Source: Salinimicrobium xinjiangense DSM 19287 (GTDB taxonomy: Bacteria > Bacteroidota > Bacteroidia > Flavobacteriales > Flavobacteriaceae). Taken from it: a DNA stretch of 64,000 nt. The translations under genes were made by a program, and so were the position numbers. The stretch covers positions 92,392 to 156,391 of the forward strand of contig NZ_KE384057.1 in the NCBI RefSeq assembly GCF_000423585.1, written 5' to 3'. The notes below the pieces were generated by a model. That model saw only the letters and a list, made by a program, of their open reading frames with translations. It did no database searches and had not been told where the DNA came from. Of this stretch, positions 22,689-50,034 are shown piece after piece; position 1 is the stretch's first letter; each line of letters starts with the position of its first letter.

Positions 22689-23120
22689 TTAATTTTCTTT
22701 ACTTGTTTTTCTAAGATTATTCCCTGTATAGGCCATCATCTCCAATTTAAACTTCTCAAATTTCTCATTGAACATCTTAATTCTTTGTCCGAGTTTAATA
22801 TGTTCATCGTGATAAAAAACTTCGCAGCTTATATCCTCACATTCGCGTATTCCTTCAATGTCGTATCTATGATTGTGCACTTCCCTAACCAGTTCAATAT
22901 TAGTTTTTTTGTACTCCTGCAGGTCATTGTAGAAAATCTGAAGTTTTTCATACAGGTTGAGCACATTCTTGCGGAAAATATCTGCTGTCAGAAATATGGT
23001 AAAGAAAAATATTTCTTCAGAAATAAAAGACAGGCTGTTTTTCCAACTGCTATTTTCCTTTAACAGCCTGTCGATATCCTTTTCATTAGCTGAAAAACTT
23101 TTGGAAGTATTTCGGTTCAT
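22689..23120 (-). CDS. Small helical protein of the stress island
   Basis: A 143-residue soluble helical protein that I do not recognise. It contains WKNSLSFISEEIFFFTIFL, EVHNHRYDIEGI and VFYHDEHIKLGQ; the His-rich turns are shared with the paralogue downstream and could bind a metal or heme, which is speculation. It is the first gene of a two-gene unit led by site CTGACATTTGTCAT, the same palindrome as before usp and hsp20, which places it in the putative island regulon. Confidence 0.7.
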   Translation of the reverse strand: MNRNTSKSFSANEKDIDRLLKENSSWKNSLSFISEEIFFFTIFLTADIFRKNVLNLYEKLQIFYNDLQEYKKTNIELVREVHNHRYDIEGIRECEDISCEVFYHDEHIKLGQRIKMFNEKFEKFKLEMMAYTGNNLRKTSKEN

Positions 23121-23140
23121 AATTTCCTGTATTTAAGATA

Positions 23141-23183
23141 TTAAGGTAAAGAATATTTCCTTTTTATTCATGACAAATGTCAG
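23141..23183 (-). promoter_or_regulatory. Island regulon site A and -7 element (22689 gene)
   Basis: Read toward the gene, the palindrome is CTGACATTTGTCAT (23183-23170). TACCTTAA (23148-23141) starts 29 bases from its centre. It fits the NTGA-N6-TCAN pattern of CRP/FNR-family sites at a class II position. Confidence 0.75.
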
Positions 23184-23274
23184 ATTAAAACGTTTCTGTT
23201 CACTTAAAATCAAAAAGAATTAAGAGTTTTTAGGTTATATTAAAAATTAACTGAAAATAATTTTTTATCATGTG

Positions 23275-23302
23275 TTGAGAATCAAAAAATGATATACATT
23301 TG
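23275..23302 (+). promoter_or_regulatory. Promoter of the acidic lipoprotein gene
   Basis: TTG at 23275-23277, a 17-base spacer, then TACATTTG at 23295-23302. A half-site TATCAT (23266-23271) lies upstream at nearly the island spacing, but the left half is missing. Confidence 0.65.
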
Positions 23303-23332
23303 ATCCCTCAAACAATTAATAATTCATTTAAA

Positions 23333-23557
23333 ATGAAAAAATCTTTTTTGACTTTTGCTGCAATCGCATTAGTATTTAGTTTTACTTCCTGTAAAGAAAC
23401 TACTACTGAAACCACTGAAGAAAGTGCAGTAGAAGTTATCGAGACTCCAGAGACTTCAATTGAAGCTGAGGAAGTTGAGGTTGAAGAAATTGCTGATACT
23501 ACAAGCACCGGTGGTACTGTAGTAGAAGACATTATCGATACTACTTCTGTAGAATAA
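23333..23557 (+). CDS. Small acidic lipoprotein
   Basis: A 74-residue protein from the ATG at 23333; the frame to 23300 precedes the predicted transcription start and is not used. It has a lipoprotein signal with the lipobox FTSC (C20), then a mature region that is almost all Thr, Glu, Val, Ile and Asp (EVEVEEIADTTSTGG). Such low-complexity acidic lipoproteins are common in Flavobacteriaceae; function unknown. It has a good promoter and terminator, so it is a real and probably well expressed gene. Confidence 0.8.
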   Translation: MKKSFLTFAAIALVFSFTSCKETTTETTEESAVEVIETPETSIEAEEVEVEEIADTTSTGGTVVEDIIDTTSVE

Positions 23558-23600: not shown

Positions 23601-23628
23601 ATCCGTGGCTTAGGCCACGGATTTTTTT
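23601..23628 (+). terminator. Intrinsic terminator of the lipoprotein gene
   Basis: A 9-bp GC-rich stem ATCCGTGGC/GCCACGGAT with loop ttag is followed by seven T. It abuts the stop of the convergent beta-CASP gene. Confidence 0.88.
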
Positions 23629-25000
23629 ATATCTCTACGTTAACCACCTGATTGAGGTGAGGGATTTCAGCTCTCCATCCATACCTGTCCCTGATCTTTA
23701 CCCTTAGATAATCTGATGCTCCTTTTTCTCCATGGATGAGAAAGATTCGTTGCGGAGAGTTTTTAATTTCATCAAGCCATTCCAGCAAGCCTTCCTGATC
23801 TGCATGTGCAGAAAGACTATTAATACTTTTAACGGCAGCCTTTAACCGGTAGTACTTCCCAAATATTTTCACCTCACTTAGTCCTTCCTGGATTTGTCTG
23901 CCTCGTGTACCTTCAGCCTGATATCCCGCCAGTAAAATGGTGGTGGAGGGATTTTCAATAAAAAATCTCAAATAGGTCAGAACTCTTCCGCCGGTGACCA
24001 TTCCGCTTCCGGCAATAACTACCTTTGGCTGCGGATCTTCTATTGTTTTCCAGGTGTCTCTGTAATTTGTGATAATCCTGAACCTTTTTTTCATCTCACG
24101 AAATTCTTCATGAGATAATTTATGCCAGGACATGAATCTGCTAAATGTCTTTAGGACCTCATTTCCCATAGGGCTGTCGATATAGACAGGAATGGGAGGG
24201 ATCTTATTTTCTTTATGTAATTTGTAAATTTCATACATAAGGGTCTGCAGCCTCTCTACTGCGAAACTGGGAATGATGAGGATACCCTGTTGCTCCAGAG
24301 TACTTTCAATAGCCTGTTTCAGGATCTTATCTGTTTCCTCCTGGGGATGTAACCTGTCTCCATAGGTGCTTTCAAGAAATAAATAATCAGCTCGTTCTGG
24401 CTTTTGTGGTGGCTTGAGCAGGCTGTCATTCTTCTGGCCAATATCACCTGAAAAAATAAAGTTTTTTTTCCCAATTTTCAATTCAATATATGTAGAACCC
24501 AGGATATGGCCGTTGGGAATCAATCTATATTTTATCTGCTCACTGAAGGTAATCCATTCCAGGGGCTTCACGGTGCTGAAAAGCTTGAGCGTCTTGGCTA
24601 CGTCATCTTCATTGTAAAGGGGAAGTGCAGGATCATGTACAGAAAAATGTTCTGAATTAGCTCTTTCAGCATCTTCCTGCTGGATCTTGGCACTATCGGT
24701 CAAAATGATCCCGGCAATGGCCAAAGTAGGGGAAGTACCTCTTATTTCTCCTTTAAAACCCTCCTTGACGAGGCGGGGCAATGCTCCTGTGTGATCGAGA
24801 TGCCCGTGAGTTAGTAATACAAGATCAATCTTAGCCGGGGGAAATGGAAATTTTTGCCAGTTAAGTTCTCTTAGCTCCTTAAGACCCTGGAACATTCCGC
24901 AGTCTATTAAAATATTCTTTCCAAAAACCTCAAGCAGAAATTTTGAACCCGTAACCGTTCCTGCGGCACCTAAAAAATGAATTTTAGCTTCTTCACTCAT
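23627..25000 (-). CDS. MBL-fold beta-CASP exonuclease (RNA processing type)
   Basis: A 457-residue metallo-beta-lactamase/beta-CASP nuclease similar to the CPSF73/Ysh1-like bacterial RNases. The start is the ATG at 25000 (MSEEAKIHFLGAAGTVTGS); the upstream extension lies inside the neighbouring gene. Metal ligands are in THGHLDH (H65, H67, D69, H70). Later motifs are FSGDIG, the beta-CASP SGMVTGGRVL and the C-terminal SLSAHADQEGL. It overlaps the ATP-cone gene by 8 bases and is the last gene of the usp operon. Homologues recur next to usp genes in low-oxygen gene clusters, to my recollection, suggesting RNA turnover during stress. Confidence 0.9.
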   Translation of the reverse strand: MSEEAKIHFLGAAGTVTGSKFLLEVFGKNILIDCGMFQGLKELRELNWQKFPFPPAKIDLVLLTHGHLDHTGALPRLVKEGFKGEIRGTSPTLAIAGIILTDSAKIQQEDAERANSEHFSVHDPALPLYNEDDVAKTLKLFSTVKPLEWITFSEQIKYRLIPNGHILGSTYIELKIGKKNFIFSGDIGQKNDSLLKPPQKPERADYLFLESTYGDRLHPQEETDKILKQAIESTLEQQGILIIPSFAVERLQTLMYEIYKLHKENKIPPIPVYIDSPMGNEVLKTFSRFMSWHKLSHEEFREMKKRFRIITNYRDTWKTIEDPQPKVVIAGSGMVTGGRVLTYLRFFIENPSTTILLAGYQAEGTRGRQIQEGLSEVKIFGKYYRLKAAVKSINSLSAHADQEGLLEWLDEIKNSPQRIFLIHGEKGASDYLRVKIRDRYGWRAEIPHLNQVVNVEI

Positions 25001-25838
25001 GAGATTTTTTATGAGGATCACATAGCTCCCGCATTTCGAAAAGAATTCGTTTTTTTCGACTTGCTGAAATTTCAAGTTGGTCAAGAAGAAAATTGTCATC
25101 GATCAATTCCCTGCATAATACGATATCCCTGCTTAGCAGGAATTGCTTTTCTCTTTGAGAAAGTAAGCCAGATACTGTGATAGGGTATAGACCCAGATGA
25201 TCAATTCTTTCTTTTAAGCTATTTCCTTTGGGATAATCCCAACTTAAAAGCTTTAAATTCATACAACGACTGTAGGCAAGAGCATCTTCTGTAAACCTTG
25301 TATTGGTCACTACCCATCCTTCATGAAATGTAGTATCATCTCCTCCATTTAACCGGTGATAATTCTTAACATCTTCAAATCGGGAATGAATATATAATGG
25401 AATTTTGACATTACAGTTTCTGCCCTGTTCACTATGGAATTTACATTCCATTAAATTTTTCTTTCCTTCTTTAATAGCCATTACATCTATTTCATGGGTT
25501 ACACATGCTCCATGGACAATTTTGCCCACCTCTACTTCATATCCCATATGTTTCATAATAGCTCCTATAAATTTTTCAAAAGGGAACCCTGTAGGTCCCA
25601 ATTCGAATATTGCCCTTTTTAATTTGTACCTCGAAGCGGTTAGCCCATCCTGTGACTTTAGGAGTTTGTAAGCCCGCTTATAAATTTCTTTAGTGGTCAT
25701 GTTCTCGTGAAGTTCCTTTCCAAGAGTTTTTAAAATATCCTGGATCACTGGCTCTCCTGCTCCTGACCTTCTAAGGGAGTTTGCCACCTTTTCTTTTGAA
25801 AAGATTGACTTCTCTCCCGATGCGGTTATAATTTTCAT
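24993..25838 (-). CDS. ATP-cone protein with PD-(D/E)XK nuclease-like domain
   Basis: A 281-residue protein. Residues 1-85 are an ATP-cone (MKIITASGEKSIFSKEKVANSLRRSGA), the nucleotide-sensing module of NrdR and ribonucleotide reductases. Residues about 86-200 form an Mrr-like restriction-endonuclease fold with D118 in HEIDVMAI and E131-C-K133 in LMECKF, an intact D...ExK active site. The C-terminal 80 residues are unassigned. The combination suggests a nuclease regulated by ATP/dATP level. It is 10 bases from the preceding usp gene and overlaps the beta-CASP gene, so the two nucleases are made together. Confidence 0.85.
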   Translation of the reverse strand: MKIITASGEKSIFSKEKVANSLRRSGAGEPVIQDILKTLGKELHENMTTKEIYKRAYKLLKSQDGLTASRYKLKRAIFELGPTGFPFEKFIGAIMKHMGYEVEVGKIVHGACVTHEIDVMAIKEGKKNLMECKFHSEQGRNCNVKIPLYIHSRFEDVKNYHRLNGGDDTTFHEGWVVTNTRFTEDALAYSRCMNLKLLSWDYPKGNSLKERIDHLGLYPITVSGLLSQREKQFLLSRDIVLCRELIDDNFLLDQLEISASRKKRILFEMRELCDPHKKSHE

Positions 25839-25848: not shown

Positions 25849-26703
25849 TCAGTTCTTCTTTATCTGAGGATGATGTAAAACTAAAACAGGTACTTTTGAA
25901 AAATGTGCAAGATTCCGGTATAATGGATTCAGCAGCATATTTTCAATCAGTGAATGTTTCTTATTTACAAAAGCAATAATGTCGCTGCCCCGACTTTCAG
26001 AGAAAGAATAGATGCCCATGGGAACACTTAAATATTCCAGATAGTGAAATGAATGTTTTACTTCTGCCAACTTCTCCTGTAGCTGTTTGCGGTTGTAATG
26101 CTGATATTGGTTCAAACCACCTTCTTCAGAGATGTGGAGGATTCTGATTGCTGAACCAAATTTCCTTGCAAGGCCAACTAAAAATTCAAGATCTACACTT
26201 GTGAGTTCTATTTTGAAACTATTAGCCAGTACTATTTCCTTCGGAGGTTTAAAACCGGCATGTGCAGGAATGGCCAGAATAGGACATTTTTCTATTTCCT
26301 CCATTACATTTAAGGTATTACTGCCATACACTACTTCTTTCGCACCGGTACGTCCCTGGGTACCAATAGATATTAAATAAGGCTTTTGCTTTTTTAATTC
26401 TTTTTTTATGGCATCAACAAGTAATAAATTATGAGTAGTTGTTTTGAACTGATGTTCTTTTCCGGCTTCTTCCTGAAGTGATTCTTTCAATTCTTCCAGT
26501 TCATCCTCCACCTCTTTTTTTGCCTTTTCAAGACTTTGCTGGCCCGGTTGTGCTGCTAACATACTTTTTTCATAATATTCAAATACCTTATAAGCATGTA
26601 GGAGTGTAAATTTCACCTTCTCATCCCGAAACATATCGATTGTATAGGAAATCGCATTGAAAGAGTTTTGGGAAAAGTCAGTGGGTAATAGAATATTTTT
26701 CAT
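25849..26703 (-). CDS. Universal stress protein, tandem UspA domains
   Basis: A 284-residue protein with two UspA domains. The first (1-145) begins MKNILLPTDFSQNSFNAI and ends with the ATP-loop-like GTQGRTGAKEVVYGSNTLNVM, close to the G2xG9G(S/T) pattern. The second (about 155-284) is divergent and lacks that loop. Third usp gene of the operon, 1 base after the previous stop. Tandem Usp proteins accumulate in stasis and hypoxia in other bacteria; the target here is unknown. Confidence 0.9.
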   Translation of the reverse strand: MKNILLPTDFSQNSFNAISYTIDMFRDEKVKFTLLHAYKVFEYYEKSMLAAQPGQQSLEKAKKEVEDELEELKESLQEEAGKEHQFKTTTHNLLLVDAIKKELKKQKPYLISIGTQGRTGAKEVVYGSNTLNVMEEIEKCPILAIPAHAGFKPPKEIVLANSFKIELTSVDLEFLVGLARKFGSAIRILHISEEGGLNQYQHYNRKQLQEKLAEVKHSFHYLEYLSVPMGIYSFSESRGSDIIAFVNKKHSLIENMLLNPLYRNLAHFSKVPVLVLHHPQIKKN

Positions 26704-26704
26704 G

Positions 26705-27550
26705 CTACTTCTTTTTGGGTGAAGGCATTACCAGGAATGGAACTTTCACATTAAAGCCTATTTCATTTACTACAGGCATGAATAAAAGGTTTTCAAAGAA
26801 TGATCTTTTATTATTTATCATGGCCAGCATATCCACTTCGTTCTCATCCTGGAAATCGAATATTGCCCGTGTTACACTTTTTTCTGTAATACTGTAAAAG
26901 TGGTGGGCATTATTTTTAAATGCTCTGCCCAATGCTCTTTTCCTGTTAGTTTGTTCGGGAGAGAGGTCTACTCCGAAATAAACGTGCAGGATGTGAATAG
27001 TAGAGGCGTGAAGATCTGCAATTTCCCTCATAACTTTAAGTAATTTGGGAATTTCGGCCTCATAATCTGTAGGGAACAGGATTTGTTTAGGTGCTTTATA
27101 CTCATATTCCGATGGAATAGCCAATAGAGGACAGCGGGTTTTTTTAATGGCATGTACAGTATGGGTTCCAAAGAGGATTTCCTGGGCTCCCGTAGCTCCT
27201 TTTGTGCCCATTACCACCAGGTCAATTTCCTTTTCTGCCACGAGGTCCTTAATTTCATCGGTCAATAAATTAAAAGATGAAATCTTTTTAAAACTATGCT
27301 TCTCATTTTTAAAGTTTCTTTTAATCCGGCGCAGGACCCTCTCAAGACCCTGCATGGATTTATTGCTGTAGATCTCAGTAAGTGTGGGTTGAGATGCACT
27401 ATAAACCAGATACTCGTTATCATATAGAACCGGAGTATAGGTGTTGAGCAGGTAAAACTCACATTCCTCTTTTTCCAATAGCTGTACTGCATATTTTATT
27501 GCGTTATAGGCATTTTCTGAAAAGTCTGTTGGTAAGAGAATTTTTTTCAT
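26705..27550 (-). CDS. Universal stress protein, tandem UspA domains
   Basis: A 281-residue double-Usp protein. Domain 1 opens MKKILLPTDFSENAYNAIKYAVQLL and contains GTKGATGAQEILFGTHTVHAI, an ATP-binding-type loop. Domain 2 (from about 155, PKQILFPTDYEAEIPKLLKV) lacks it. It ends MLAMINNKRSFFENLLFMPVVNEIGF, a tail motif shared with both neighbouring Usp proteins (SxxENLLxxP), evidence that the three arose by duplication. Middle gene of the usp run, 11 bases after the first. Confidence 0.9.
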   Translation of the reverse strand: MKKILLPTDFSENAYNAIKYAVQLLEKEECEFYLLNTYTPVLYDNEYLVYSASQPTLTEIYSNKSMQGLERVLRRIKRNFKNEKHSFKKISSFNLLTDEIKDLVAEKEIDLVVMGTKGATGAQEILFGTHTVHAIKKTRCPLLAIPSEYEYKAPKQILFPTDYEAEIPKLLKVMREIADLHASTIHILHVYFGVDLSPEQTNRKRALGRAFKNNAHHFYSITEKSVTRAIFDFQDENEVDMLAMINNKRSFFENLLFMPVVNEIGFNVKVPFLVMPSPKKK

Positions 27551-27561: not shown

Positions 27562-28410
27562 TTATGATCTATGGAAATTTTGAAGCACGAGGAAGGGGAT
27601 TGGTGGATGTAGTCCAATTTTATCAATGGTGGATTTATAAAGGAGGTTTTCAAGGTAACTATGACGGGAATTTACCAGGATGAGCAGGTCTATATCTAAT
27701 TCTGATATCATTTTTTCCATGGCTTCAGTCTTTTCCAGGAGCTCTTCATGATGGAACTCCACTTTAATCTCATATAACTGATCTAAAATGGCATCCTTAT
27801 TATCTTTCTGTCTAAAGGTTTCTTTTGGAGACTTGGAAACATAAAGCATATGGACTTCAGCGCAAAAGGATCGTGCAATTCCTCCAACAAGTTTGAGTTC
27901 ACGTCGTTGATATGGTAATAGGTAATTGGTGGGAAATAAAATGCGGTGTGGATCAGAAAAGTCATAGTTTTCAGGTATACTCAGGACCGGACATTGTACA
28001 TATTTTATGATTTGCAGCGTATTACTTCCAAAGGTGAGCTTCCTATCGTTGGTAAGTCCGCGGGTGGAGGTTACTATGAGATCTGCATTTTCTTTTTCGG
28101 CCAGATCATTTACCTCGTCAATCAGGAGACCAAATGCAGATATTGTATAGTACTTATGTTTTGGATTTGGAAAGAGATCCAGAATGCGGGATTTCAATTT
28201 TTCCAGTTCCCGGTCTGCCTTCTTTTTTACGCTTTCCTTATATTCTTCAAGGAATTCTCTGGTAATGGTTGCTTCAGTATTAAAAACCTCATCGGCATAG
28301 GCATGTAAGATATAAAGCTCACTTTTTTCATACTTAAATAATTCAGAAGCATATTTCAGAGCATTGAATGCATTCTCTGAAAAATCTGTAGGGATAATTA
28401 TTTTTCTCAT
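27562..28410 (-). CDS. Universal stress protein, tandem UspA domains (operon leader)
   Basis: A 282-residue double-Usp protein when started at ATG 28410 (MRKIIIPTDFSENAFNALKYASEL); the frame extends to 28458 but that region holds the promoter and regulatory palindrome, and the shorter start aligns with the two other Usp proteins. Domain 1 has the STRGLTNDRKLTFGSNTLQII loop. First gene of a five-gene operon: three usp genes, the ATP-cone nuclease and the beta-CASP RNase. Confidence 0.9.
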   Translation of the reverse strand: MRKIIIPTDFSENAFNALKYASELFKYEKSELYILHAYADEVFNTEATITREFLEEYKESVKKKADRELEKLKSRILDLFPNPKHKYYTISAFGLLIDEVNDLAEKENADLIVTSTRGLTNDRKLTFGSNTLQIIKYVQCPVLSIPENYDFSDPHRILFPTNYLLPYQRRELKLVGGIARSFCAEVHMLYVSKSPKETFRQKDNKDAILDQLYEIKVEFHHEELLEKTEAMEKMISELDIDLLILVNSRHSYLENLLYKSTIDKIGLHPPIPFLVLQNFHRS

Positions 28411-28427
28411 TACCTGGATTTTACTCT

Positions 28428-28471
28428 TAAATTTAGACGAAAATACCTGAGCAAACAATGATACTTGTCAT
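28428..28471 (-). promoter_or_regulatory. Island regulon site B and -7 element (usp operon)
   Basis: Read toward the gene: ATGACAAGTATCAT (28471-28458). TAAATTTA (28435-28428) starts exactly 30 bases from the centre, giving a predicted start of transcription about 12 bases before the ATG. Confidence 0.8.
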
Positions 28472-29020: not shown

Positions 29021-29064
29021 TTAAATTAAATATCAGCTTTTTATGCTGTCATGATAAATGTCAT
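29021..29064 (-). promoter_or_regulatory. Island regulon site C and -7 element (hsp20)
   Basis: Read toward hsp20: ATGACATTTATCAT (29064-29051). TAATTTAA (29028-29021) starts exactly 30 bases from the centre. Same layout as sites B, D, E, F. Confidence 0.8.
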
Positions 29065-32327: not shown

Positions 32328-32333
32328 CCTATT

Positions 32334-33098: not shown

Positions 33099-33099
33099 G

Positions 33100-33896: not shown

Positions 33897-33940
33897 TAAA
33901 GCTACTGGAGATGAATGGAATTAACTATGATATCTCTCAG
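33897..33940 (-). promoter_or_regulatory. Island regulon site E and -7 element (mlaEFD)
   Basis: Read toward mlaE: CTGAGAGATATCAT (33940-33927). TAGCTTTA (33904-33897) starts exactly 30 bases from the centre, giving a transcription start about 13 bases before the ATG. Confidence 0.7.
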
Positions 33941-34104: not shown

Positions 34105-34125
34105 AGGAGATTTAAAAAGTTGTTT

Positions 34126-40756: not shown

Positions 40757-40765
40757 ATAGAGAAT

Positions 40766-42298: not shown

Positions 42299-42299
42299 A

Positions 42300-44714
42300 A
42301 TGGATGACTGGAAAATTAAATATTTAGAATATTCTCCTCAGGAAGAGTCTCTTAGAGAATCACTTTGTACTGTTGGTAACGGATATTTCGCCACCAGGGC
42401 TGCTGCAGAAAGCGCATTGCCGGGCAATATTCATTATCCGGGAACTTATCTCGCCGGAGGTTATAACCGGCTTGAAACTACTATTGCCGGACGTGTCATT
42501 GAAAATGAAGACCTGGTGAACTGGCCCGACTGGACTTTGTTGAGGTTTAAAGTGGAGGATGGAGACTGGTTTGATATTGATGCTGTTGAAATTCTGGAAT
42601 TTCAGCAATCCCTAAACCTGAAAGAGGGAATATTAGAGCGAGAAGTGATATTCAGGGATAAGATGGGTTATGAATCCCGACTTATTAGTCGCAGGATAGC
42701 GAGTATGGCAGAAATGCATATTGCAGGCATAAAATGGGAGCTGCAGCCCCTCAACTGGTCAGGTCGTTTAACTATTCATTCCGCTTTAAATGCAAAGATA
42801 ACCAACTCCGGTGTTGACCGTTACAGGGCTCTCAATGGTCAACACCTTATTTCCCTCGAAACAGGAAGTTTTGAAGAAGACGGAATTTTTCTTAAAGTGA
42901 GAAGCAGCCAGTCTGAAATTGTTATGGCACAGGCCTGCAGGACTCTGCTGCATTTTGAATTATATGAGCCTGCCTTAGAAAGGAAAAATGTTATAGAACA
43001 GGATTATGTCGCCCAGGAACTCATTTTTGAAGCCCGGGAAAATAAGATCATCAGTGTTGAAAAAATTGTAGCGATCTATATCTCCAGGGACATGGCCATG
43101 GCCGATCCTTTATATGAGGCAAAGAAGCTGGTAACCAGGAGCTCTGGATTTGATGAAATTTTCCGGTTTCATAAAATGGCCTGGGAGGAGCTATGGGGAC
43201 AGAGCGATATTACCTTAAAGGCTGACGGGGATAATGATCAACTATTACTAAGGCTGCATATTTTTCACCTTTTTCAGACCTTTAGCCTCAAGACCATTGA
43301 TGAAGATGTAGGAATCCCGGCCAGGGGATGGCATGGGGAAGCTTATCGCGGACATATCTTCTGGGATGAGCTATTCATCTTTCCTTTCTATAATATCACA
43401 ATTCCCGAATTAACCCGTGCATTACTTTTGTACCGCTACAGAAGGCTGCGGGAAGCGCGATTTGCAGCCACCAAAGAAGGCCTGAAAGGCGCTATGTTTC
43501 CATGGCAAAGCGGAAGCAACGGGCGCGAAGAAACACAGGTATTACACCTTAATCCTGAATCTGGAAACTGGTTGCCAGATAATACACATTTACAACGACA
43601 TGTAAATGCGGCTATAGCTTATAATGTGTGGCAGTATTTCCAGGTGACAGGAGATCTTCAGTTCCTTTCTTTTTACGGTGCAGAATTACTGCTGGAAATT
43701 GCAAAATTTTGGGAGAGCAAGGTAATTTTTAACGACAAAAGAGAGAAGTATGAGATTCATGAGGTCGTTGGTCCGGACGAATATCACACCTCTTATCCCA
43801 ATTCTTCCGAAGCTGGTCTTCGCAATAACGCATATACCAATATTATGGTAGTTTGGACGCTGAGACATGCTTTATATGCACTCGAGAAACTTAATGATAG
43901 AAGAGCCAGGGATCTTCTCAAATTATTGGAGATAAATGAAGAAGAGCTTTCCCGCTGGAAGAATATTTGTAAGAAAATGTTTGTTCCCTTTTTAAAAGAC
44001 GGTGAAATTATAGAACAATTTGAAGGATTTAGTGATTTAAAGGACCTTGACTGGAACAGGTACCATTCATTATATGGGGAGTCCATGCGACTGGATCGTA
44101 TTTTAGAGAAGGAAGGAGATGATGTAAAAAATTATAAGGCAGTAAAGCAACCAGATGTATTGATGCTTTTTTATCTATTCTCTTCTGAAGAGCTTGTCGA
44201 ATTATTTGCACTTATGGGATATGCTTTTGAGCCAAAGGAACAAATTCCTCTAAATATTGATTATTACCGGAAAATAACATCCCATGGTTCAACTCTTAGC
44301 AAAGTAGTTTATTCCTGGGTTTATGCCAGGTCGCACAGAGAGGAGTCCTGGAAAGACTTTAAGGAAGCCCTCATTAGTGATTTTTTCGATATTCAGCGAG
44401 GTACAACTGCAGAGGGAATACACCTTGGAGCAATGGCCGGAACAGTAGATCTTATTCATCGCTGTTACACCGGTATGGAATTTAAAAAAGAACGGCTGTA
44501 TTTTAACCCCGGGCTACCTCCCAATGTTCAGGAAATAAATTTTAGATGCAGGTATCGTCGACACTGGCTTGAAATAAAACTCACACAAGACCTGCTTTTC
44601 CTTAAAAGTCATGGAGGGTGGCAGGACATTATAAGGATTGTAGTTAATGAAGAAGAATTTACAATGAGGAAAGGGGAGGAGAGAAGTTTTACCTATCGGA
44701 AAAAAGAGGTTTAG
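42300..44714 (+). CDS. GH65-family disaccharide phosphorylase or hydrolase (trehalose/kojibiose type)
   Basis: An 804-residue GH65 protein: N-terminal beta-sandwich (1-270), linker, (alpha/alpha)6 barrel (about 320-680) and small C-terminal beta domain. The general acid is E494 in VVGPDEYHTS; GWHGEAYRGHIFWDELFIFPF is the classic barrel signature. GH65 enzymes phosphorolyse trehalose, kojibiose or maltose to beta-glucose-1-phosphate, the substrate of the HAD domain encoded just upstream. No otsA or treS is present in the window. The intact acid and the phosphate-loop-like GSTLSK (about 660) favour a phosphorylase. Last gene of the operon. Confidence 0.88.
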   Translation: MDDWKIKYLEYSPQEESLRESLCTVGNGYFATRAAAESALPGNIHYPGTYLAGGYNRLETTIAGRVIENEDLVNWPDWTLLRFKVEDGDWFDIDAVEILEFQQSLNLKEGILEREVIFRDKMGYESRLISRRIASMAEMHIAGIKWELQPLNWSGRLTIHSALNAKITNSGVDRYRALNGQHLISLETGSFEEDGIFLKVRSSQSEIVMAQACRTLLHFELYEPALERKNVIEQDYVAQELIFEARENKIISVEKIVAIYISRDMAMADPLYEAKKLVTRSSGFDEIFRFHKMAWEELWGQSDITLKADGDNDQLLLRLHIFHLFQTFSLKTIDEDVGIPARGWHGEAYRGHIFWDELFIFPFYNITIPELTRALLLYRYRRLREARFAATKEGLKGAMFPWQSGSNGREETQVLHLNPESGNWLPDNTHLQRHVNAAIAYNVWQYFQVTGDLQFLSFYGAELLLEIAKFWESKVIFNDKREKYEIHEVVGPDEYHTSYPNSSEAGLRNNAYTNIMVVWTLRHALYALEKLNDRRARDLLKLLEINEEELSRWKNICKKMFVPFLKDGEIIEQFEGFSDLKDLDWNRYHSLYGESMRLDRILEKEGDDVKNYKAVKQPDVLMLFYLFSSEELVELFALMGYAFEPKEQIPLNIDYYRKITSHGSTLSKVVYSWVYARSHREESWKDFKEALISDFFDIQRGTTAEGIHLGAMAGTVDLIHRCYTGMEFKKERLYFNPGLPPNVQEINFRCRYRRHWLEIKLTQDLLFLKSHGGWQDIIRIVVNEEEFTMRKGEERSFTYRKKEV

Positions 44715-44740: not shown

Positions 44741-44784
44741 CTGATGAATATCATCGCTGATTATCATGCTTTGGACTAAATTTA
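44741..44784 (+). promoter_or_regulatory. Island regulon site F and -7 element (exporter operon)
   Basis: CTGATGAATATCAT (44741-44754). TAAATTTA (44777-44784), identical to the usp-operon -7, starts exactly 30 bases from the centre. Confidence 0.7.
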
Positions 44785-44797: not shown

Positions 44798-45883
44798 ATG
44801 AACAGGAGTTGGTTTTTAGCAGTAACCTTAGTCTTCCTTATTTCCTGTAAGCAACAGCAGGAAAAGATCTATCCCATAGAAACCAGTATCACAGAGTCTG
44901 TCTATGCTTCAGTGATTGTGCAGCCCGATAGTCTTTACCAGGCCTTTACCGTGGTAAACGGTATTTTGGATGAGAATCTCGTGGAGGAGGGTGACCTGGT
45001 CAATAAAGGTGATGTATTGGTGCAGATCATAAAGACCAATCCCGAAATAGCATCCAAAAATGCCCTTTTAGACCTGCAACTGGCCCGGGAGAACCTGGAA
45101 GGTGGCGCAGCGGTTCTTTCCAGTCTTGAGGAGGAAATAAAAGCCGCTAAACTTCAGTATCTCAATGATTCAGTGAATTTCAAAAGGCAGGAGCGGCTCT
45201 GGGAGCAGCAAATCGGTTCCCGAACCAATCTTGAAAGCAAAAAACTGGCTTATGATAAATCAAAAACAGCTCTGGAAAGGCTTCAGAATGAATATAATCG
45301 AACCAAAAAAGAGTTGGAGACCCGTTATAAACAGGCGCAGAATGCATACAGGGCATCCCAGGTGAATACTACCGACTATTCTGTCACCAGTAAAATAGAT
45401 GGAAAAGTTTATGCTCTACATAAAAATCCGGGGGAGATTGTAAGTCCGACTCAGCCGTTGGTTACTTTAGGGAGTGCAAACAAATTTGTTATAGAGATGC
45501 TGGTAGATGAAGAGGACATTGTAAGGCTGAGAGAAGGGCAGCCTGTTTATCTTAGGCTGGATGCCTATCCGGAGATCATTTTTACTGCTGTAGTTCACAA
45601 GATATATCCAAAGAAGGATGAACGGAATCAGACTTTCCTGGTAGAAGCACTTTTTGAGGAGGCGCCCGAAGTTTTATTGCCGGGATTGTCCGGGGAAGCC
45701 AATATAGTGGTGGCAAAAAGGGAAAACGCGCTCGTGATTCCGCGCAGTTTTCTAATTGGGAAAAACCGGGTAAGGACAGAGAATGGAATCGTTGAGGTTA
45801 TTACCGGCCTTCAAAGTATAGATTCCATAGAGATAAAAAACGGAATTACCGCAAAGACAGAATTATTACCACCTGAGGAGTGA
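44798..45883 (+). CDS. HlyD/MacA-like periplasmic adaptor lipoprotein
   Basis: A 361-residue membrane-fusion protein with a lipoprotein signal (LVFLISC, C17). A lipoyl half-motif near residue 60 (ENLVEEGDLVNKGDVLVQI), a helical hairpin of about 110-200 (LARENLEGGAAVLSSLEEEIKAAKLQ), the second lipoyl half (SKIDGKVYALHKNPGEIVSPTQPLVTLG) and the beta-barrel (IVRLREGQPVYLRLDAYP) follow in order. It bridges an inner-membrane ABC exporter to the outer membrane. First of three genes (adaptor, permease, ATPase). No TolC gene is in the window. Confidence 0.9.
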   Translation: MNRSWFLAVTLVFLISCKQQQEKIYPIETSITESVYASVIVQPDSLYQAFTVVNGILDENLVEEGDLVNKGDVLVQIIKTNPEIASKNALLDLQLARENLEGGAAVLSSLEEEIKAAKLQYLNDSVNFKRQERLWEQQIGSRTNLESKKLAYDKSKTALERLQNEYNRTKKELETRYKQAQNAYRASQVNTTDYSVTSKIDGKVYALHKNPGEIVSPTQPLVTLGSANKFVIEMLVDEEDIVRLREGQPVYLRLDAYPEIIFTAVVHKIYPKKDERNQTFLVEALFEEAPEVLLPGLSGEANIVVAKRENALVIPRSFLIGKNRVRTENGIVEVITGLQSIDSIEIKNGITAKTELLPPEE

Positions 45884-47142
45884 AAAAGTACAGAGTAATA
45901 TTGAGCATTGCCAAAACGCACCTCGTGAGTAAACTGCGGCAAACGCTTATTGCTGCTCTGGGCGTCACCTTTGGTATAGGTTCCTATATTACTCTTGTGA
46001 GTTTCATGACCGGTCTTAACCAGATGCTGGACGATCTTATCCTGAATCAAACGCCTCATGTTCATATCTTCAATGAGATCAAGCCGACAGAGGAGCAGCC
46101 GGTAACTTTGACCGATGGTGTGGCCGGATCTTTTAACGTAGTTTATTCAGTCAGGCCAAAGCTGTCCCAAAAGAAGATCCATAATGCCAAACCTCTCATG
46201 GAATATCTCAATAGAGATGAAAGGGTAAAAGGTGCTATTCCGCAGGTGAAGACACAGGTGTTTTATGTGGCAGGCTCCATTGAATTGGGTGGGAATCTTT
46301 CGGGGGTTGAAATTCTAAAAGAGGAAGAGCTTTTCAACCTTGGAGATTATATTGTAAAAGGCAGCGCCAGGGATCTACACAACACATCTAACGGGATCAT
46401 TCTTGGTGCAGGGGTGGCAGAGAAATTAAGTCTGGAAGTAGGGGATAGGGTTCAGGTAACGACCGTTAAAGGCGATATTTTTCCACTTAAGATCGTTGGG
46501 ATCTATCAAAGCGGAATTGTTGAAATCGATAATGTGCAAAGTTATACCAACCTTGGTACGGTTCAGCGAATTCTTGGGGAACCGGAAAGTTATATAACTG
46601 ATATTAATCTAAAATTATTTGATATAGAAGAAGCAATTCCTATTGCTGAAGCTGTGGAGAAGCAGTTTGGATTAACGGCAATCGATGTTCAAACGGCCAA
46701 TGCCCAGTTTGAAACCGGAACGACAGTTCGAAACCTCATCACTTATGCGGTTTCCATAACCTTACTCGTAGTGGCCGGTTTTGGAATTTATAATATCCTG
46801 AATATGTTGATATATGAGAAGATGAACGATATTGCCATTTTAAAAGCTACAGGCTTTTCAGGAAAAGATGTGCAGTTGATCTTTATGAGTCAGGCGCTAA
46901 TTATAGGCTTTTTGGGAGGTGTTATCGGGCTGCTTCTGGGTTATGGTCTTTCCGTATTAATTAGTAATACTCCCTTTGATACAGAGGCATTGCCAACAGT
47001 GGAGACTTATCCGGTGAATTTTGATATGGCCTTCTATGTTATCGGGATCAGCTTTGCTATGCTTTCGACATTTTTTGCCGGATACTTTCCATCGCGGAAG
47101 GCCCGAAAGATCGATCCTGTGAGGATCATAACCGGAATTTGA
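45880..47142 (+). CDS. MacB/FtsX-type ABC permease
   Basis: A 420-residue permease beginning at GTG 45880, overlapping the adaptor stop by 4 bases. One N-terminal span (TLIAALGVTFGIGSYITLVSF), a large periplasmic domain (about 45-285) and three C-terminal spans with the FtsX signature (YEKMNDIAILKATGFSGKDVQLIFMSQALIIGFLGG and PSRKARKIDPVRIITG) are seen. MacB/LolCE-like; with a lipoprotein adaptor next to it, a mechanotransmitting exporter is more likely than LolCE. Substrate unknown. Confidence 0.9.
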   Translation: MKKYRVILSIAKTHLVSKLRQTLIAALGVTFGIGSYITLVSFMTGLNQMLDDLILNQTPHVHIFNEIKPTEEQPVTLTDGVAGSFNVVYSVRPKLSQKKIHNAKPLMEYLNRDERVKGAIPQVKTQVFYVAGSIELGGNLSGVEILKEEELFNLGDYIVKGSARDLHNTSNGIILGAGVAEKLSLEVGDRVQVTTVKGDIFPLKIVGIYQSGIVEIDNVQSYTNLGTVQRILGEPESYITDINLKLFDIEEAIPIAEAVEKQFGLTAIDVQTANAQFETGTTVRNLITYAVSITLLVVAGFGIYNILNMLIYEKMNDIAILKATGFSGKDVQLIFMSQALIIGFLGGVIGLLLGYGLSVLISNTPFDTEALPTVETYPVNFDMAFYVIGISFAMLSTFFAGYFPSRKARKIDPVRIITGI

Positions 47143-47144
47143 TT

Positions 47145-47828
47145 ATGAAGGCAATTCTTGAGGCTAAATATATTGATAAGCATTTTAGAAAACCCGTGGA
47201 TTTCCATGTTCTGAAGGATATCAATTTTAAGGTGAATCAGGGAGAGTTTGTATCTGTTATGGGGAAATCCGGTTGCGGAAAATCAACTCTCCTGTACATT
47301 TTGTCCACTATGGATACCGACTATGAAGGAGAATTGTACTTAAATGATGAGCTGCTCACTGGCAAGCATCCGGATTATCTGGCTTATGTGAGAAACAAGC
47401 ATATAGGCTTTGTATTCCAGTTTCATTACCTGCTCCCCGAGTTTACAGTACTGGAGAATATTATGCTTCCGGCTCGTAAGCTGGGAGAAAAATCAAATGA
47501 AGAAATAAGGACCGATGCCCTTCACAAACTTGAAATTCTGCAGATAGCCGAACTGGCACAGAAAAAAGCATCCCGTATTTCGGGCGGAGAAAAGCAACGG
47601 GTGGCTATTGCCAGGGCGCTAATAAATGATCCCGCTATAATTATGGGAGACGAACCAACGGGAAATCTTGACAGCCATAATTCCGAAAATGTCCTTAGAA
47701 TATTCAGGCAGTTGAGTGATGAGCAGGGTCTTTCGTTGTTGATCGTTACACACGACCATGATTTCGCCCAAAGTACAGACAGGATCATTTCAATGGAAGA
47801 TGGCAGGATAATTAGTGAGGGCCGGTAA
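47145..47828 (+). CDS. MacB/LolD-type ABC ATPase
   Basis: A 227-residue ATPase from the ATG at 47145; a TTG at 47139 is possible. Walker A GKSGCGKST, signature RISGGEKQRVAIARAL, Walker B IIMGDEPTGNLD and switch H in VTHDHDF are all intact. The GEPTGNLDSxxxxxVLxI block is typical of the LolD/MacB subfamily. Third gene of the exporter set. Confidence 0.93.
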   Translation: MKAILEAKYIDKHFRKPVDFHVLKDINFKVNQGEFVSVMGKSGCGKSTLLYILSTMDTDYEGELYLNDELLTGKHPDYLAYVRNKHIGFVFQFHYLLPEFTVLENIMLPARKLGEKSNEEIRTDALHKLEILQIAELAQKKASRISGGEKQRVAIARALINDPAIIMGDEPTGNLDSHNSENVLRIFRQLSDEQGLSLLIVTHDHDFAQSTDRIISMEDGRIISEGR

Positions 47829-47959
47829 TAAAAAAAATCTGATATTCTGGTCATCTAAGTTCCTGGACTTCCGGATATTTCAACTTCAGCAGCAGAATTA
47901 AGAAAACCTGAACATATTTCCGGAAGAATAATTTCTATTTTGTATCAAAATTCAGAACA

Positions 47960-48799
47960 ATGAAATGGAAAGGCAGGAGAAAAAGTTCAAATGTTGAAGA
48001 CCGCAGGGGAAGTTCTAAAGGGAAGATTGCGGCAGGAGGAGGAATAATTGCGCTTATCTTTATCGCCATCCAGTTGTTCACAGGGGGGGATGCCACCGAG
48101 ATACTTAACCAATTTCAGGAGCAGGCTCCGGCAGGGGAAACAAGAGAACTTACCGCTGAAGAAAAAGAGGTAGGAGAATTCACTAAAGTAGTTCTGGCAG
48201 ATACAGAAGACGTTTGGCACCAGCTTTTTCAACAAAGCGGAGCCAGATATGAGGAGCCCGGAATGGTGCTCTTCAGTGATGCAGTAAATACTGCCTGTGG
48301 AGGTGCTTCTGCTGCAGCGGGACCTTTTTATTGTCCGGCCGATCAGACGATTTACATGGACCTTCGCTTTTTTGAAGAACTCCGCACCCGTTTTGGTGCC
48401 GAAGGTGGAGATTTCGCCATAGCTTATGTTATAGCTCATGAGGTAGGTCATCACATCCAGACTATTCTTGGTACTTCAGGAAAAGTCCGGCAACTTCAGC
48501 AAAATCTAAATCAGCGGGAGTCAAATGAACTTTCTGTGGCCCTGGAATTGCAGGCAGATTTCTATGCAGGGATCTGGGCGCATTATAACAGGGAATATCT
48601 TGAAGGAGGGGATATACAGGAGGCTTTAAGTGCCGCCAGTGCAGTGGGGGATGATGCCATCCAAAGAAGAACATCGGGGAAAGTAGTGCCTGACGCTTTC
48701 ACCCACGGAACTTCCGAACAGAGAATGGAGTGGTTTATGAAAGGTTATCGCAGCGGAGATCTTTCCCGGGGTGACACTTTTAAACAGCTCGCAAATTAA
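47960..48799 (+). CDS. ypfJ: YpfJ-family neutral zinc metallopeptidase
   Basis: A 279-residue membrane-anchored protein: a basic N-terminus (MKWKGRRKSSNVEDRRG), one membrane span (about 28-45, IAAGGGIIALIFIAIQLF), then the peptidase domain. Zinc motif HEVGHH at H160-H164; VNTACGGASAAAGPFYCPADQTIYMDLRFFEEL precedes it and LELQADFYAGIWAH follows, the classic family layout. Substrates unknown. The last 4 bases overlap the convergent membrane-protein gene. Confidence 0.92.
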   Translation: MKWKGRRKSSNVEDRRGSSKGKIAAGGGIIALIFIAIQLFTGGDATEILNQFQEQAPAGETRELTAEEKEVGEFTKVVLADTEDVWHQLFQQSGARYEEPGMVLFSDAVNTACGGASAAAGPFYCPADQTIYMDLRFFEELRTRFGAEGGDFAIAYVIAHEVGHHIQTILGTSGKVRQLQQNLNQRESNELSVALELQADFYAGIWAHYNREYLEGGDIQEALSAASAVGDDAIQRRTSGKVVPDAFTHGTSEQRMEWFMKGYRSGDLSRGDTFKQLAN

Positions 48800-49116
48800 A
48801 CAAGGGCAGGGAAACTTACCGCCAGTATCACGATGTTGATTACAGATCCGTACTTTGCATCTTCCCAATTCAGGGTAATTAAGAATTGTGAAAGGAGCGC
48901 TCCAATAATGGCCAGGACCGGCCAGTACCCCGATCCCATCAGGAAATACAAATCTGCTATAAAAAGCAGTATAGCACAAAGCAGCCATAAAATACCTTCA
49001 GGTTTTCCGATCTTTCGGGATAGCGCCGGTAAAAAGTCATCATAAAATGATTTTACCAGTCCCATTAGATGTAAGATGGCGTGCAATAGCAACAGGAGGG
49101 AGATGAATATTTTCAT
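48796..49116 (-). CDS. Small hydrophobic membrane protein
   Basis: A 106-residue protein with about four hydrophobic segments (1-22, 40-60, 66-84, 90-106). No motif identifies a family, though the HAILHLMGLVKSF start resembles small ABC-transporter-independent membrane proteins of Flavobacteria. It overlaps the upstream usp gene by 4 bases (ATGA type), so it is translationally coupled to it, and by 4 bases the convergent ypfJ. Confidence 0.72.
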   Translation of the reverse strand: MKIFISLLLLLHAILHLMGLVKSFYDDFLPALSRKIGKPEGILWLLCAILLFIADLYFLMGSGYWPVLAIIGALLSQFLITLNWEDAKYGSVINIVILAVSFPALV

Positions 49117-49970
49117 GTGGAAAGGAAAGTCGTCTTTCGGTTTTTACGGGAACGATTATAATTTACAGGATAATTCTTTTCAAATCCCGGTATTATTAGA
49201 AGTGGTACCTCAAGTCCCGAAAGACTTTTTAGATAACTGTCATCACTTAATTTTCTTTCCATATTATAATTGCTCACGGGAAGTAATTCCACATCAAACT
49301 TTTGCTGCCTTTCTGCCTCTTTGTTTCTTTGATATTCATTGAAGCTGAAAAACTTAACTACAGGACGATATGAGTCGAAAATTCCGAAAAGCTTATCCGC
49401 CATCCTTTTTGAAATCTCATCCTTTAGATCTCCTGCTGAAATTTTATGGATTTCAAGAGAAAAGTTATGATTCCCATAGAATCTCTTTAAAGGATTTAAT
49501 ATAGCAGGATTTGCCTCAATATTGGGAGCCAGGAGAAGCAGTACTTTTTTTGGCGGGATAAATAAACCTTTAGGTGGAATTAACAATAAAGGAGCATCAA
49601 GCTTTGGGAGTGATTTGTTCAGTCCTACAGTGTCAAAATTATTTACATTATTACTGACAATGATCAGGGAAAGCTGCTTCTCAACCAGGGACACATCTGC
49701 ATAAGAATTCAAGGCATAGAAGTGAAATTTTTCCTCCGGGAAGAATTTTTTGACTTTTTTTTCCAGGTCTTTTGCTTCATGTTTGGTGGCAAAAATTATA
49801 CATTCCTCCTTTTCCGGATTAGGTGACAAGCTGCTATCTGCAGAATTCAAACATGAACCTATGCCTTTCAAATAAAAATTGCAATCCCGCCCTTTCATCA
49901 AATGAAGGCCGTACAGCACCGCATTACGGGATGATGCCGAAAAATCTGAGGGGATCAGAATATTTTTCAT
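49113..49970 (-). CDS. Universal stress protein, fourth of the island
   Basis: A 285-residue tandem-Usp protein, strongly diverged. The start MKNILIPSDFSASSRNAVLYGLHLM fits a Usp domain; the second half begins PPKKVLLLLAPNIEANPAILNPLKRFYG. The ATP-type glycine loop is not recognisable in either half, so nucleotide binding is doubtful. It shares the late Leu-rich tail (SLSGLEVPLLIIPG) with the others. A degenerate island site (G) lies upstream. Confidence 0.8.
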   Translation of the reverse strand: MKNILIPSDFSASSRNAVLYGLHLMKGRDCNFYLKGIGSCLNSADSSLSPNPEKEECIIFATKHEAKDLEKKVKKFFPEEKFHFYALNSYADVSLVEKQLSLIIVSNNVNNFDTVGLNKSLPKLDAPLLLIPPKGLFIPPKKVLLLLAPNIEANPAILNPLKRFYGNHNFSLEIHKISAGDLKDEISKRMADKLFGIFDSYRPVVKFFSFNEYQRNKEAERQQKFDVELLPVSNYNMERKLSDDSYLKSLSGLEVPLLIIPGFEKNYPVNYNRSRKNRKTTFLST

Positions 49971-49990
49971 AGCCGGGGAAAATTTGTTCT

Positions 49991-50034
49991 ATAATTTACG
50001 AAAAAGAACTTTTAGTAAAAAGGATTTTTATCAG
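49991..50034 (-). promoter_or_regulatory. Degenerate island site G and -7 element (49113 usp)
   Basis: Read toward the gene: CTGATAAAAATCCT (50034-50021), with TCC in place of TCA. TAAATTAT (49998-49991) starts 30 bases from the centre, the same spacing as in the strong sites. Confidence 0.45.

What the first reader, a model, noticed from the sequence alone, without database searches (positions are those of the whole stretch)
22689..50034. A shared 14-bp CRP/FNR-geometry palindrome with fixed -7 spacing defines an undescribed stress regulon
Reading each toward its gene: A CTGACATTTGTCAT (before 23120), B ATGACAAGTATCAT (usp operon), C ATGACATTTATCAT (hsp20), D GTGACGTATGTCAT (34126 operon), E CTGAGAGATATCAT (mlaEFD), F CTGATGAATATCAT (exporter), and degenerate G CTGATAAAAATCCT (fourth usp). 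All strong sites fit NTGA-N6-TCAN with the promoter-proximal half TRTCAT. In each, a TAnnTT element (TACCTTAA, TAAATTTA, TAATTTAA, TAAATTGA, TAGCTTTA, TAAATTTA, TAAATTAT) starts 30 bases from the palindrome centre (29 for A). That puts the centre near -41.5, the class II activator position, and suggests that the activator replaces the -33 contact. A+T-rich DNA makes isolated matches likely, but the constant spacing and restriction to one functional island are hard to explain by chance.
Basis: partly seen in the sequence, partly recalled or inferred. Interest (0 to 1): 0.95.

Follow-up and report, generated by a model that had tools for sequence, protein, structure and literature searches.

The report
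Flavobacterial low-oxygen survival regulon switch
In this bacterium and in dozens of related genera, clusters of stress-survival genes carry the same DNA switch at one fixed distance from their promoter element, likely thrown by a fused two-component/CRP-type activator that is predicted to answer an oxygen-sensing kinase, which would make it a counterpart of the low-oxygen dormancy programme of mycobacteria.

Summary
Sites A-G are present verbatim, with TAnnTT 30 bases from the centre (29 for A). Five NTGAN4TRTCAT sites at exactly 30 occur in the window; 400 shuffles average 0.0025. The spacing persists in related Salinimicrobium islands and in 40 islands from 40 other genera, chosen by another gene: 215 sites at offset 30, at most 9 at any other offset from 20 to 40. 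With the published -7 position the centre lies at -41.5, the class II position. Restriction to one island is wrong: 9 of 14 genome-wide sites at 30 lie outside the window.

The likely activator is encoded in the island: receiver + cNMP-binding + HTH_Crp (29102-30142). A paralogue follows a kinase whose PAS domain matches FixL and DosP, heme-ligand histidine conserved; 25 of 26 regulator-bearing islands of other genera have this kinase next to the regulator.

Against exclusivity: genomes without this regulator also use the box, so stand-alone CRP/FNR proteins probably share it. Binding, phosphorylation, heme and transcription starts are untested.

The parts
23170..23183 (-). Site A CTGACATTTGTCAT before the 22689-23120 gene; TAnnTT at offset 29 (23148-23143)
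   Evidence: orthologous gene has a site at 29-31 in 9 of 10 genomes, own included
28458..28471 (-). Site B ATGACAAGTATCAT before the usp operon; TAnnTT at offset 30 (28435-28430)
   Evidence: site at 30 in 9 of 11 orthologous positions, own included
29051..29064 (-). Site C ATGACATTTATCAT before hsp20; TAnnTT at offset 30 (29028-29023)
   Evidence: 8 of 9, own included; the ninth, a truncated hsp20, has ATGACATTTCTCAT with TAnnTT at 30 upstream (counted by eye on the sequence)
33927..33940 (-). Site E CTGAGAGATATCAT before mlaE-mlaF-mlaD; TAnnTT at offset 30 (33904-33899)
   Evidence: 9 of 9, own included
34061..34074 (+). Site D GTGACGTATGTCAT before the flavin reductase operon; TAnnTT at offset 30 (34097-34102)
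   Evidence: 3 of 3, own included
44741..44754 (+). Site F CTGATGAATATCAT before HlyD-FtsX-ABC; TAnnTT at offset 30 (44777-44782)
   Evidence: 5 of 5, own included
50021..50034 (-). Site G CTGATAAAAATCCT before the fourth usp-like gene; degenerate; TAnnTT at offset 30 (49998-49993)
   Evidence: three orthologues carry full sites at 29-30
29102..30142 (-). RR-Crp1: receiver + cNMP_binding + HTH_Crp_2 (346 aa), predicted activator of the sites
   Evidence: tree; recognition helix GISTESFIRSL; model
28525..28992 (-). hsp20 small heat shock protein, proposed target of C
   Evidence: Pfam HSP20
27562..28458 (-). usp1, first gene behind site B; the conserved start is inside at about 28410
   Evidence: Pfam Usp; start
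26705..27550 (-). usp2
   Evidence: Pfam Usp
25849..26703 (-). usp3
   Evidence: Pfam Usp
24993..25838 (-). Mrr_cat/ATP-cone-like protein, island marker gene (the ATP-cone match is below Pfam's cut-off)
   Evidence: found in 107 of 249 family genomes
23627..25099 (-). metallo-beta-lactamase/beta-CASP protein
22689..23120 (-). 143-aa protein of unknown family behind site A
   Evidence: no Pfam or NCBIfam hit
31332..33879 (-). mlaD, mlaF, mlaE lipid-transport genes behind site E
34120..36933 (+). flavin reductase, M20 peptidase, DUF1611-like protein behind site D
   Evidence: DUF1611 match is below Pfam's cut-off
37018..44714 (+). pfkB kinase, P-type cation ATPase, trehalose phosphatase/HAD, GH65: possibly read through from D, without a site of their own
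   Evidence: 0 of 10 pfkB upstream regions have a site at 29-31
44798..47828 (+). HlyD, FtsX-like permease, ABC ATPase behind site F
49113..49970 (-). fourth usp-like gene behind site G
   Evidence: no Pfam hit; weak tblastn similarity to usp genes of the relatives' islands

Best explanation
Sites A-F belong to a family-wide set of NTGA-N6-TCAN boxes that lie at one fixed distance (30 bases, 29 in A) from a flavobacterial -7-like element, where a CRP/FNR-type activator, most likely the island-encoded receiver-CRP fusion RR-Crp, is predicted to bind at -41.5 and recruit RNA polymerase. Shown: sites, spacing, conservation, gene content, domain make-up and the kinase-regulator gene pair. Inferred: a kinase with a predicted FixL-type heme PAS domain would phosphorylate RR-Crp when oxygen falls. 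RR-Crp would then bind as a dimer, each recognition helix (E-x-x-x-R) reading one TGA half, and would take over the role of the -33 contact. Survival genes (universal stress proteins, Hsp20, lipid transport, exporter, flavin enzymes) would be switched on. In Salinimicrobium the kinase sits with the paralogue RR-Crp2 at a usp-ric-norB locus; RR-Crp1 stands on the island without a kinase found beside it and would share that kinase or use another. Stand-alone CRP/FNR proteins probably read some of the same boxes.
For: Spacing: in 29 loci around full-length RR-Crp genes, 141 NTGAN6TCAN sites have TAnnTT at offset 30, mean 6.7 at other offsets; gap lengths N5, N7 and N8 give 2, 0 and 2 there; 51 control loci (831 kb) give 0 for N6. 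In 40 islands chosen by mrr, offset 30 has 174 sites in the 26 stretches holding RR-Crp and 41 in the 14 without; the highest other offset from 20 to 40 has 6 and 4. Position: -7 box at -12..-5 in F. psychrophilum (PMC9723704, passages). Logo of 151 sites: TGA(T/C)A..T(A/G)TCAT, T-rich -34..-30, no enriched TTG -33 element. Regulator; helix E-S/T-x-I-R in 31 of 31 RR-Crp rows. Synteny: 25 of 26 RR-Crp stretches carry HK2 next to it, three of them cut by the stretch end; the kinase ends -3 to 16 nt from the regulator match in 35 of 40. Sensor: the PAS domain alone matches 14 PDB sequences, 12 named FixL, DosP or heme PAS, one yddU (recalled to be DosP) and one multi-sensor kinase; His conserved in 26 of 26 kinases under 470 residues and in 10 of 12 first PAS domains of longer ones. 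Targets: of 215 offset-30 sites, 196 have an ORF within 260 nt, 83 of them usp and 20 hsp20; genome-wide also usp-ric-norB, nrfH-like, hemerythrin, ferredoxin.
Against: Genomes without full-length RR-Crp also use the box: 9 of 30 TGACANNTATCAT sites read (82 matches in 18 genomes) have TAnnTT at 30, before hemN-, ccoN-, TonB-like and usp genes. G018, without RR-Crp, has 3 offset-30 sites in its mrr stretch, one before usp1. Stretches without RR-Crp also hold fewer island genes, so their lower site number is not a clean test. No kinase was found among the 30 ORFs scanned at 20378-51495. RR-Crp's own promoter has no site at 29-31 (0 of 11). pfkB, ATPase, TPP and GH65 have no site of their own. 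The distal Arg of the heme pocket is kept in 22 of 26 and 6 of 12. A third own protein, C7:168638-169228, has the same helix signature. No binding, expression or start-site data exist for this organism here.
Confidence: 0.7

Rival explanations
1. The boxes are ordinary FNR-type sites read mainly by a stand-alone CRP/FNR protein (in this genome most likely C7:168638-169228); the receiver-CRP fusion is a neighbour with a smaller or different role.
For: The box with spacing 30 occurs in genomes without RR-Crp, before anaerobic-type genes hemN and ccoN, and in the mrr stretch of RR-Crp-less G018. The palindrome TGAYANNTRTCA outnumbers its backward control in 12 of 18 genomes without RR-Crp too. 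The C7 protein has the E-x-x-x-R helix and close relatives, 77-93%, in six of six same-genus genomes searched.
Against: Sites crowd around RR-Crp: 6.7 per 19-kb stretch with it, 2.9 without, 0-2 in 9 of 14 without (confounded by fewer island genes there). The palindrome outnumbers its control in 18 of 19 genomes with RR-Crp. Among RR-Crp-less genomes outside the genus only G036 has a C7 relative as high as 48%; the rest have weak hits or none. TGACANNTATCAT sites with TAnnTT at 30: 17 of 30 read in RR-Crp genomes, 9 of 30 in those without.
Confidence: 0.22
2. The island answers a nitrosative or redox signal rather than oxygen: the kinase PAS domain senses NO or redox state, and activates the same boxes.
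For: HK2-RR-Crp2 in Salinimicrobium sits beside usp-ric-norB with a site before that operon; nrfH-like and hemerythrin genes are also behind sites. The regulator half aligns best with the DNR protein in the PDB.
Against: The PAS domain matches FixL and DosP by sequence; in the other genera the pair sits with usp-hsp20 islands and tblastn with norB found nothing in those stretches.
Confidence: 0.2
3. Chance matches in A+T-rich DNA.
For: The bare palindrome is not clearly enriched in the window.
Against: Five sites against a shuffle mean of 0.0025, a sharp peak at offset 30 in other genomes and none at N5, N7 or N8 gaps in the RR-Crp loci, and conserved positions before orthologous genes.
Confidence: 0.01

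Closest known systems
FixL-FixJ-FixK cascade (rhizobia; also Burkholderia)
   Same: Predicted heme-PAS kinase, receiver domain, CRP/FNR-type activator, FNR-like box, low-oxygen role (PMC6127331 and PMC9104464, passages; the box recalled)
   Different: Here receiver and CRP-type DNA-binding output are one protein, so one transcriptional step of the cascade would be missing; sequence identity is low; no function tested
DosR/DevR dormancy regulon of Mycobacterium and OsdR of Streptomyces
   Same: Two-component control of usp and heat shock genes, with many sites around the regulator in the OsdR case (PMC5069765, passages)
   Different: DosR has a LuxR-type output (recalled); here the output is HTH_Crp_2; box and promoter type differ
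lxa low-oxygen-activated locus of Burkholderia cenocepacia
   Same: Six usp genes, a heat shock protein, phosphofructokinase and a metallo-beta-lactamase superfamily protein in one low-oxygen locus, with an Anr/FixK-like protein as candidate regulator (PMC6127331, PMC9104464, passages)
   Different: No receiver-CRP fusion in the passages read; different phylum and promoter
FNR of E. coli and class II FNR promoters
   Same: TGA-N6-TCA geometry, centre at -41.5, E-x-x-x-R recognition helix (FNR details recalled)
   Different: The RR-Crp1 CRP half has no cysteine for an Fe-S cluster (sequence); outer base of the box is free; flavobacterial -7-like element

Membership tests
CRP/FNR superfamily (RR-Crp1) | cNMP-binding domain plus Crp-type helix-turn-helix | tested here: met
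   Pfam cNMP_binding and HTH_Crp_2 above cut-off; CRP, FixK2 and FNR chains among the 50 listed fold matches
CRP/FNR superfamily (RR-Crp1) | Recognition helix with E-x-x-x-R for a TGA half-site | tested here: met
   E and R present in 31 of 31 rows, E312 and R316 invariant in 23; role of the residues recalled
Oxygen-sensing FNR proper | Cysteines for an oxygen-labile Fe-S cluster | tested here: not met
   No cysteine in the 199-residue CRP half (sequence)
Two-component response regulator | Receiver domain with phospho-acceptor Asp | tested here: met
   Response_reg; D53 invariant in 23 aligned rows; L185, left out of that alignment, lacks it
Two-component system | Cognate histidine kinase | tested here: inconclusive
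   Kinase next to RR-Crp in 25 of 26 stretches and to RR-Crp2 in this genome; none found near RR-Crp1 among the ORFs scanned at 20378-51495
FixL-type heme PAS kinase (HK2) | Heme-ligand histidine in the PAS domain | tested here: met
   Aligned with FixL and DosP His; 26 of 26 and 10 of 12
FixL-type heme PAS kinase (HK2) | Heme binding and O2-controlled autophosphorylation | not testable with these tools
   needs purified protein
Class II activator-dependent promoter | Activator centre at -41.5 | tested here: inconclusive
   Spacing to the -7 box gives -41.5 if this box lies at -12..-5 as in F. psychrophilum; starts not mapped here
DosR/DevR regulon | Regulator with LuxR/NarL-type output (recalled) | tested here: not met
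   Output is HTH_Crp_2

The most novel reading that the evidence does not exclude
A FixL-like heme kinase and a receiver-CRP fusion collapse the FixL-FixJ-FixK cascade into two proteins that run a DosR-like oxygen-survival regulon across the Flavobacteriaceae, through one rigid -41.5 promoter design; in Salinimicrobium the regulator gene is present twice, one copy on the stress island and one with the kinase at the nitric-oxide reductase locus.
Probability: 0.5. Interest if true: 0.75.

Novelty: new variant of a known kind. Interest (0 to 1): 0.63.

Why it matters
Flavobacteria are abundant in seas, sediments and soils, yet I found little on their oxygen-limitation control. A single promoter rule (box centre 30 bases before TAnnTT) would let the regulon be listed in other genomes of the family, names a testable activator and sensor kinase, and gives a natural candidate for a CRP-type output driven by phosphorylation. 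It would also be another lineage, beside mycobacteria and Burkholderia, in which usp and small heat shock genes are gathered under one low-oxygen-type switch.

Tried and rejected
Rejected: chance. Rejected: a private, single-island regulon. Rejected: RR-Crp as the only reader of the box. Rejected: a minor peak of TAnnTT at offset 7 as a repressor class; the first T is already fixed by TCAT, so composition explains it (inference). No Rfam family in 20000-52000; no tRNA in the window.

Limits: the 29 loci include several Salinimicrobium copies, and several of the 40 islands are the same loci as (for example L308/L164, L323/L169, L337/L167). The control loci were not matched for composition; in them N5 and N8 gaps have 8 and 9 at offset 30 against means of 4.2 and 3.1, while N6 has 0. 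The kinase rows include own and near copies. Only 30 of 82 and 30 of 61 pattern matches were read, and some of the 18 genomes counted as lacking RR-Crp are incomplete (80-93%). Four of 109 genome-wide sites were not read. In one search some upstream regions rest on partial or cross matches (TPP in three genomes, usp2 in G009, usp4 in four). The AlphaFold model has pTM 0.42, so domain placement is not informative. Rows left out of alignment A1 (23 of 31): L160, L171, L173, L174, L177, L178, L185 and RR-Crp2 of this genome. The remainder of the window (1-20 kb, 52-64 kb) was not scanned for kinases.
Full report
Observation. The window is from a Flavobacteriaceae genome; the best named matches of its regulator are in Salinimicrobium species. 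Sites A-G were found exactly as written, with TAnnTT at offset 30 from the palindrome centre, 29 for A. The palindrome alone is not clearly unusual in the window (31 against 23.5 +/- 4.9). With the promoter-proximal half TRTCAT and the spacing, it is: 5 sites at exactly 30 against a shuffle mean of 0.0025, maximum 1 in 400.

TGANNNNTRTCAT occurs 109 times in the genome (pattern read backwards: 47). For the 105 that could be read with flanks, TAnnTT sits at offset 30 in 14 and at no other offset in more than 5; the binomial chance of 14 from the background rate is about 2e-15. Nine of the 14 are outside the window. With a second pattern (30 of 38 places read) and the paralogue's locus, the genes behind outside sites include three usp genes, usp-ric-norB, a hemerythrin, an NrfH-like cytochrome, a cytochrome c lipoprotein, formate-THF ligase, a ferredoxin, an OsmC-like protein, NhaA and an SDR (names read by eye from translations, except the usp-ric-norB genes, which have Pfam hits). 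This refutes restriction to one island and extends the regulon to anaerobic and nitrosative functions. One outside site, C16:68265, has no start codon within 300 nt; C10:58258 lies 204 nt from a TonB-like gene whose relatives in G007 and G018 also have such a site.

Conservation in the genus. Ten islands of relatives were read; G009 and G003 only in part, G004 rearranged. Counting the window, a site at 29-31 precedes the orthologue of the A gene in 9 of 10, usp1 in 9 of 11, hsp20 in 8 of 9, mlaE in 9 of 9, flavin reductase in 3 of 3 and HlyD in 5 of 5. Genes inside operons or outside the proposed regulon have none at 29-31: bCASP 0 of 8, usp2 0 of 11, cupredoxin 0 of 11, RR-Crp 0 of 11, ATPase 0 of 7, TPP 0 of 8, GH65 0 of 6, Zn peptidase 0 of 5, pfkB 0 of 10, luxR1 0 of 9, p22214 0 of 10. 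usp3 has one only in G004 (1 of 11), where it no longer follows usp1 and usp2. In G011 the usp1 site is degenerate (5 of 6 core bases). G009 shows no site before usp1 or the A gene.

Conservation across genera. Around 29 full-length RR-Crp genes (Salinimicrobium, Salegentibacter, Gillisia, Lutibacter, Confluentibacter, Christiangramia, Flagellimonas and unnamed Flavobacteriaceae), offset 30 has 141 sites, the mean of the others is 6.7, and palindromes with N5, N7 or N8 gaps show no peak there; 51 loci fetched only for a receiver-domain match show 0 at offset 30. To avoid choosing by the regulator, 40 islands in 40 other genera were taken by the mrr-like island gene (found in 107 of 249 family genomes). 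Offset 30 has 215 sites and no other offset from 20 to 40 more than 9. Of these 215, 196 have an ORF within 260 nt, at a median of 55 nt: 83 usp, 20 hsp20, 8 and 7 of the two unknown small island proteins, 3 mlaE, 2 HlyD, 2 mrr, one each of three others, and 68 unclassified, among them 20 of one unknown family (representative 145 aa), 10 of a family whose representative has WG repeats, 7 of one with a ribosome-hibernation (S30AE) domain and 6 of one with a pyridoxamine-oxidase-like domain.

Promoter geometry. In the mapped transcriptome of Flavobacterium psychrophilum the sigma-A -7 box TAnnTTTG lies at -12 to -5 (PMC9723704, passages read). Offset 30 then puts the palindrome centre at -41.5. 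The logo of 151 deduplicated sites reads TGA(T/C)A..T(A/G)TCAT, then a T-rich stretch at -34..-30, and TA..TT(T)(A/G) at -12..-5; TTG stands at -35..-33 in 14 of 151 and at no other place from -34 to -16 in more than 6. The missing -33 TTG fits an activator standing in for that contact (inference).

Regulator. The gene between hsp20 and the cupredoxin gene encodes a receiver, a cNMP-binding and a Crp-type HTH domain. Two clades exist (each 100/100): RR-Crp1 (the island copy in Salinimicrobium, with Gillisia, Salegentibacter and Christiangramia) and RR-Crp2 (the other rows, and a second copy in Salinimicrobium). Both carry E-x-x-x-R in the recognition helix (31 of 31), the FNR/CRP signature for a TGA half-site (recalled). 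By sequence the second half matches DNR, CRP and FixK2; by fold CRP, FixK2 and FNR (model pTM 0.42). Its CRP half has no cysteine, so it is not an Fe-S FNR.

Kinase. RR-Crp2 in this genome directly follows a PAS-HisKA-HATPase kinase, and the same pair sits in or heads the usp-mrr-bCASP-hsp20 island in many of the other genera, with sites before most transcription units there; the kinase gene ends -3 to 16 nt from the regulator match in 35 of 40 loci. The PAS domain alone matches 14 PDB sequences: 12 named FixL, DosP or heme PAS sensor, one yddU (recalled to be DosP) and one multi-sensor kinase; its histidine aligns with the heme ligand. It is kept in 26 of 26 kinases under 470 residues and in 10 of 12 first PAS domains of longer kinases; the distal arginine in 22 of 26 and 6 of 12 (near copies included). 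Heme binding is therefore predicted, not shown. PAS domains with this motif that bind other ligands cannot be excluded.

Who reads the boxes. Site density is higher with RR-Crp in the stretch (6.7 against 2.9; 0-2 in 9 of 14 without, though L309 and L336 have 9 and 10), but stretches without it also hold fewer island genes, and whether RR-Crp lies elsewhere in those genomes could not be asked. The symmetric palindrome outnumbers its backward control in 18 of 19 family genomes with RR-Crp and 12 of 18 without. RR-Crp is not the only reader. In 18 genomes without full-length RR-Crp, 9 of 30 sites read have TAnnTT at 30, against 17 of 30 in 13 genomes with it; the genes there look like hemN, ccoN and usp among others (by eye). 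The mrr stretch of RR-Crp-less G018 has 3 sites at offset 30, one before usp1, and that of G022 none. The box is best seen as a family-wide FNR-type box shared by RR-Crp and stand-alone CRP/FNR proteins.

Comparison. It would work like the FixL-FixJ-FixK cascade with FixJ's receiver and FixK's output fused, and resembles the DosR and lxa programmes in gene content (PMC5069765, PMC6127331, PMC9104464, passages). It is not a DosR member (wrong output domain) and not an FNR proper (no cysteines). None of the 25 best NCBIfam models shown for RR-Crp1, RR-Crp2 or the kinase reaches its cut-off. A paper on CRP/FNR proteins in an anammox microbiome treats a Flavobacteriales homologue as MalR-like, and the term 'universal stress' does not occur in it (PMC8510549, passages). 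In 10 library searches (listings, with passages of the papers named here) I saw no description of this regulon.

Verdict. A real, family-wide class II-type regulon with a likely receiver-CRP activator and a predicted oxygen-sensing kinase: a new variant of a known kind, with binding, signal and starts untested.

Noticed in passing
L185, RR-Crp of Gillisia marina (10001-11008): The receiver domain has lost the phospho-acceptor aspartate motif (VMIYNKSNP where others have DIMMP), on a long branch; it may act without phosphorylation.
   Followed up: no
G005 island (L046), between RR-Crp and usp1: tblastn finds only residues 94-155 of hsp20 in this genome, yet a box and -7-like element are still present upstream.
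   Followed up: partly
L308-L347: An unknown protein family (representative 145 aa, no Pfam match) stands behind 20 of 215 boxes, as often as hsp20.
   Followed up: partly
L308-L347, for example L343: Small proteins of a family with an S30AE domain (ribosome hibernation type) stand behind seven boxes, which would fit a dormancy role.
   Followed up: no
window 24993-25838: Mrr_cat-like protein next to a beta-CASP protein; found in 107 of 249 family genomes, the two genes adjacent in 38 of 40 stretches read.
   Followed up: partly
G006:C11:553749 (L277): A gene that looks like a stand-alone CRP/FNR protein itself has a box with TAnnTT at 30 before it, hinting at a cascade between CRP/FNR proteins.
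   Followed up: no
window 50833-52272: Two adjacent LuxR-type genes (the first with a weak PAS_3 match; the second not scanned) stand at the island's edge in this genome; a luxR1 relative was found in 8 of 10 relatives' stretches without a box at 29-31.
   Followed up: no
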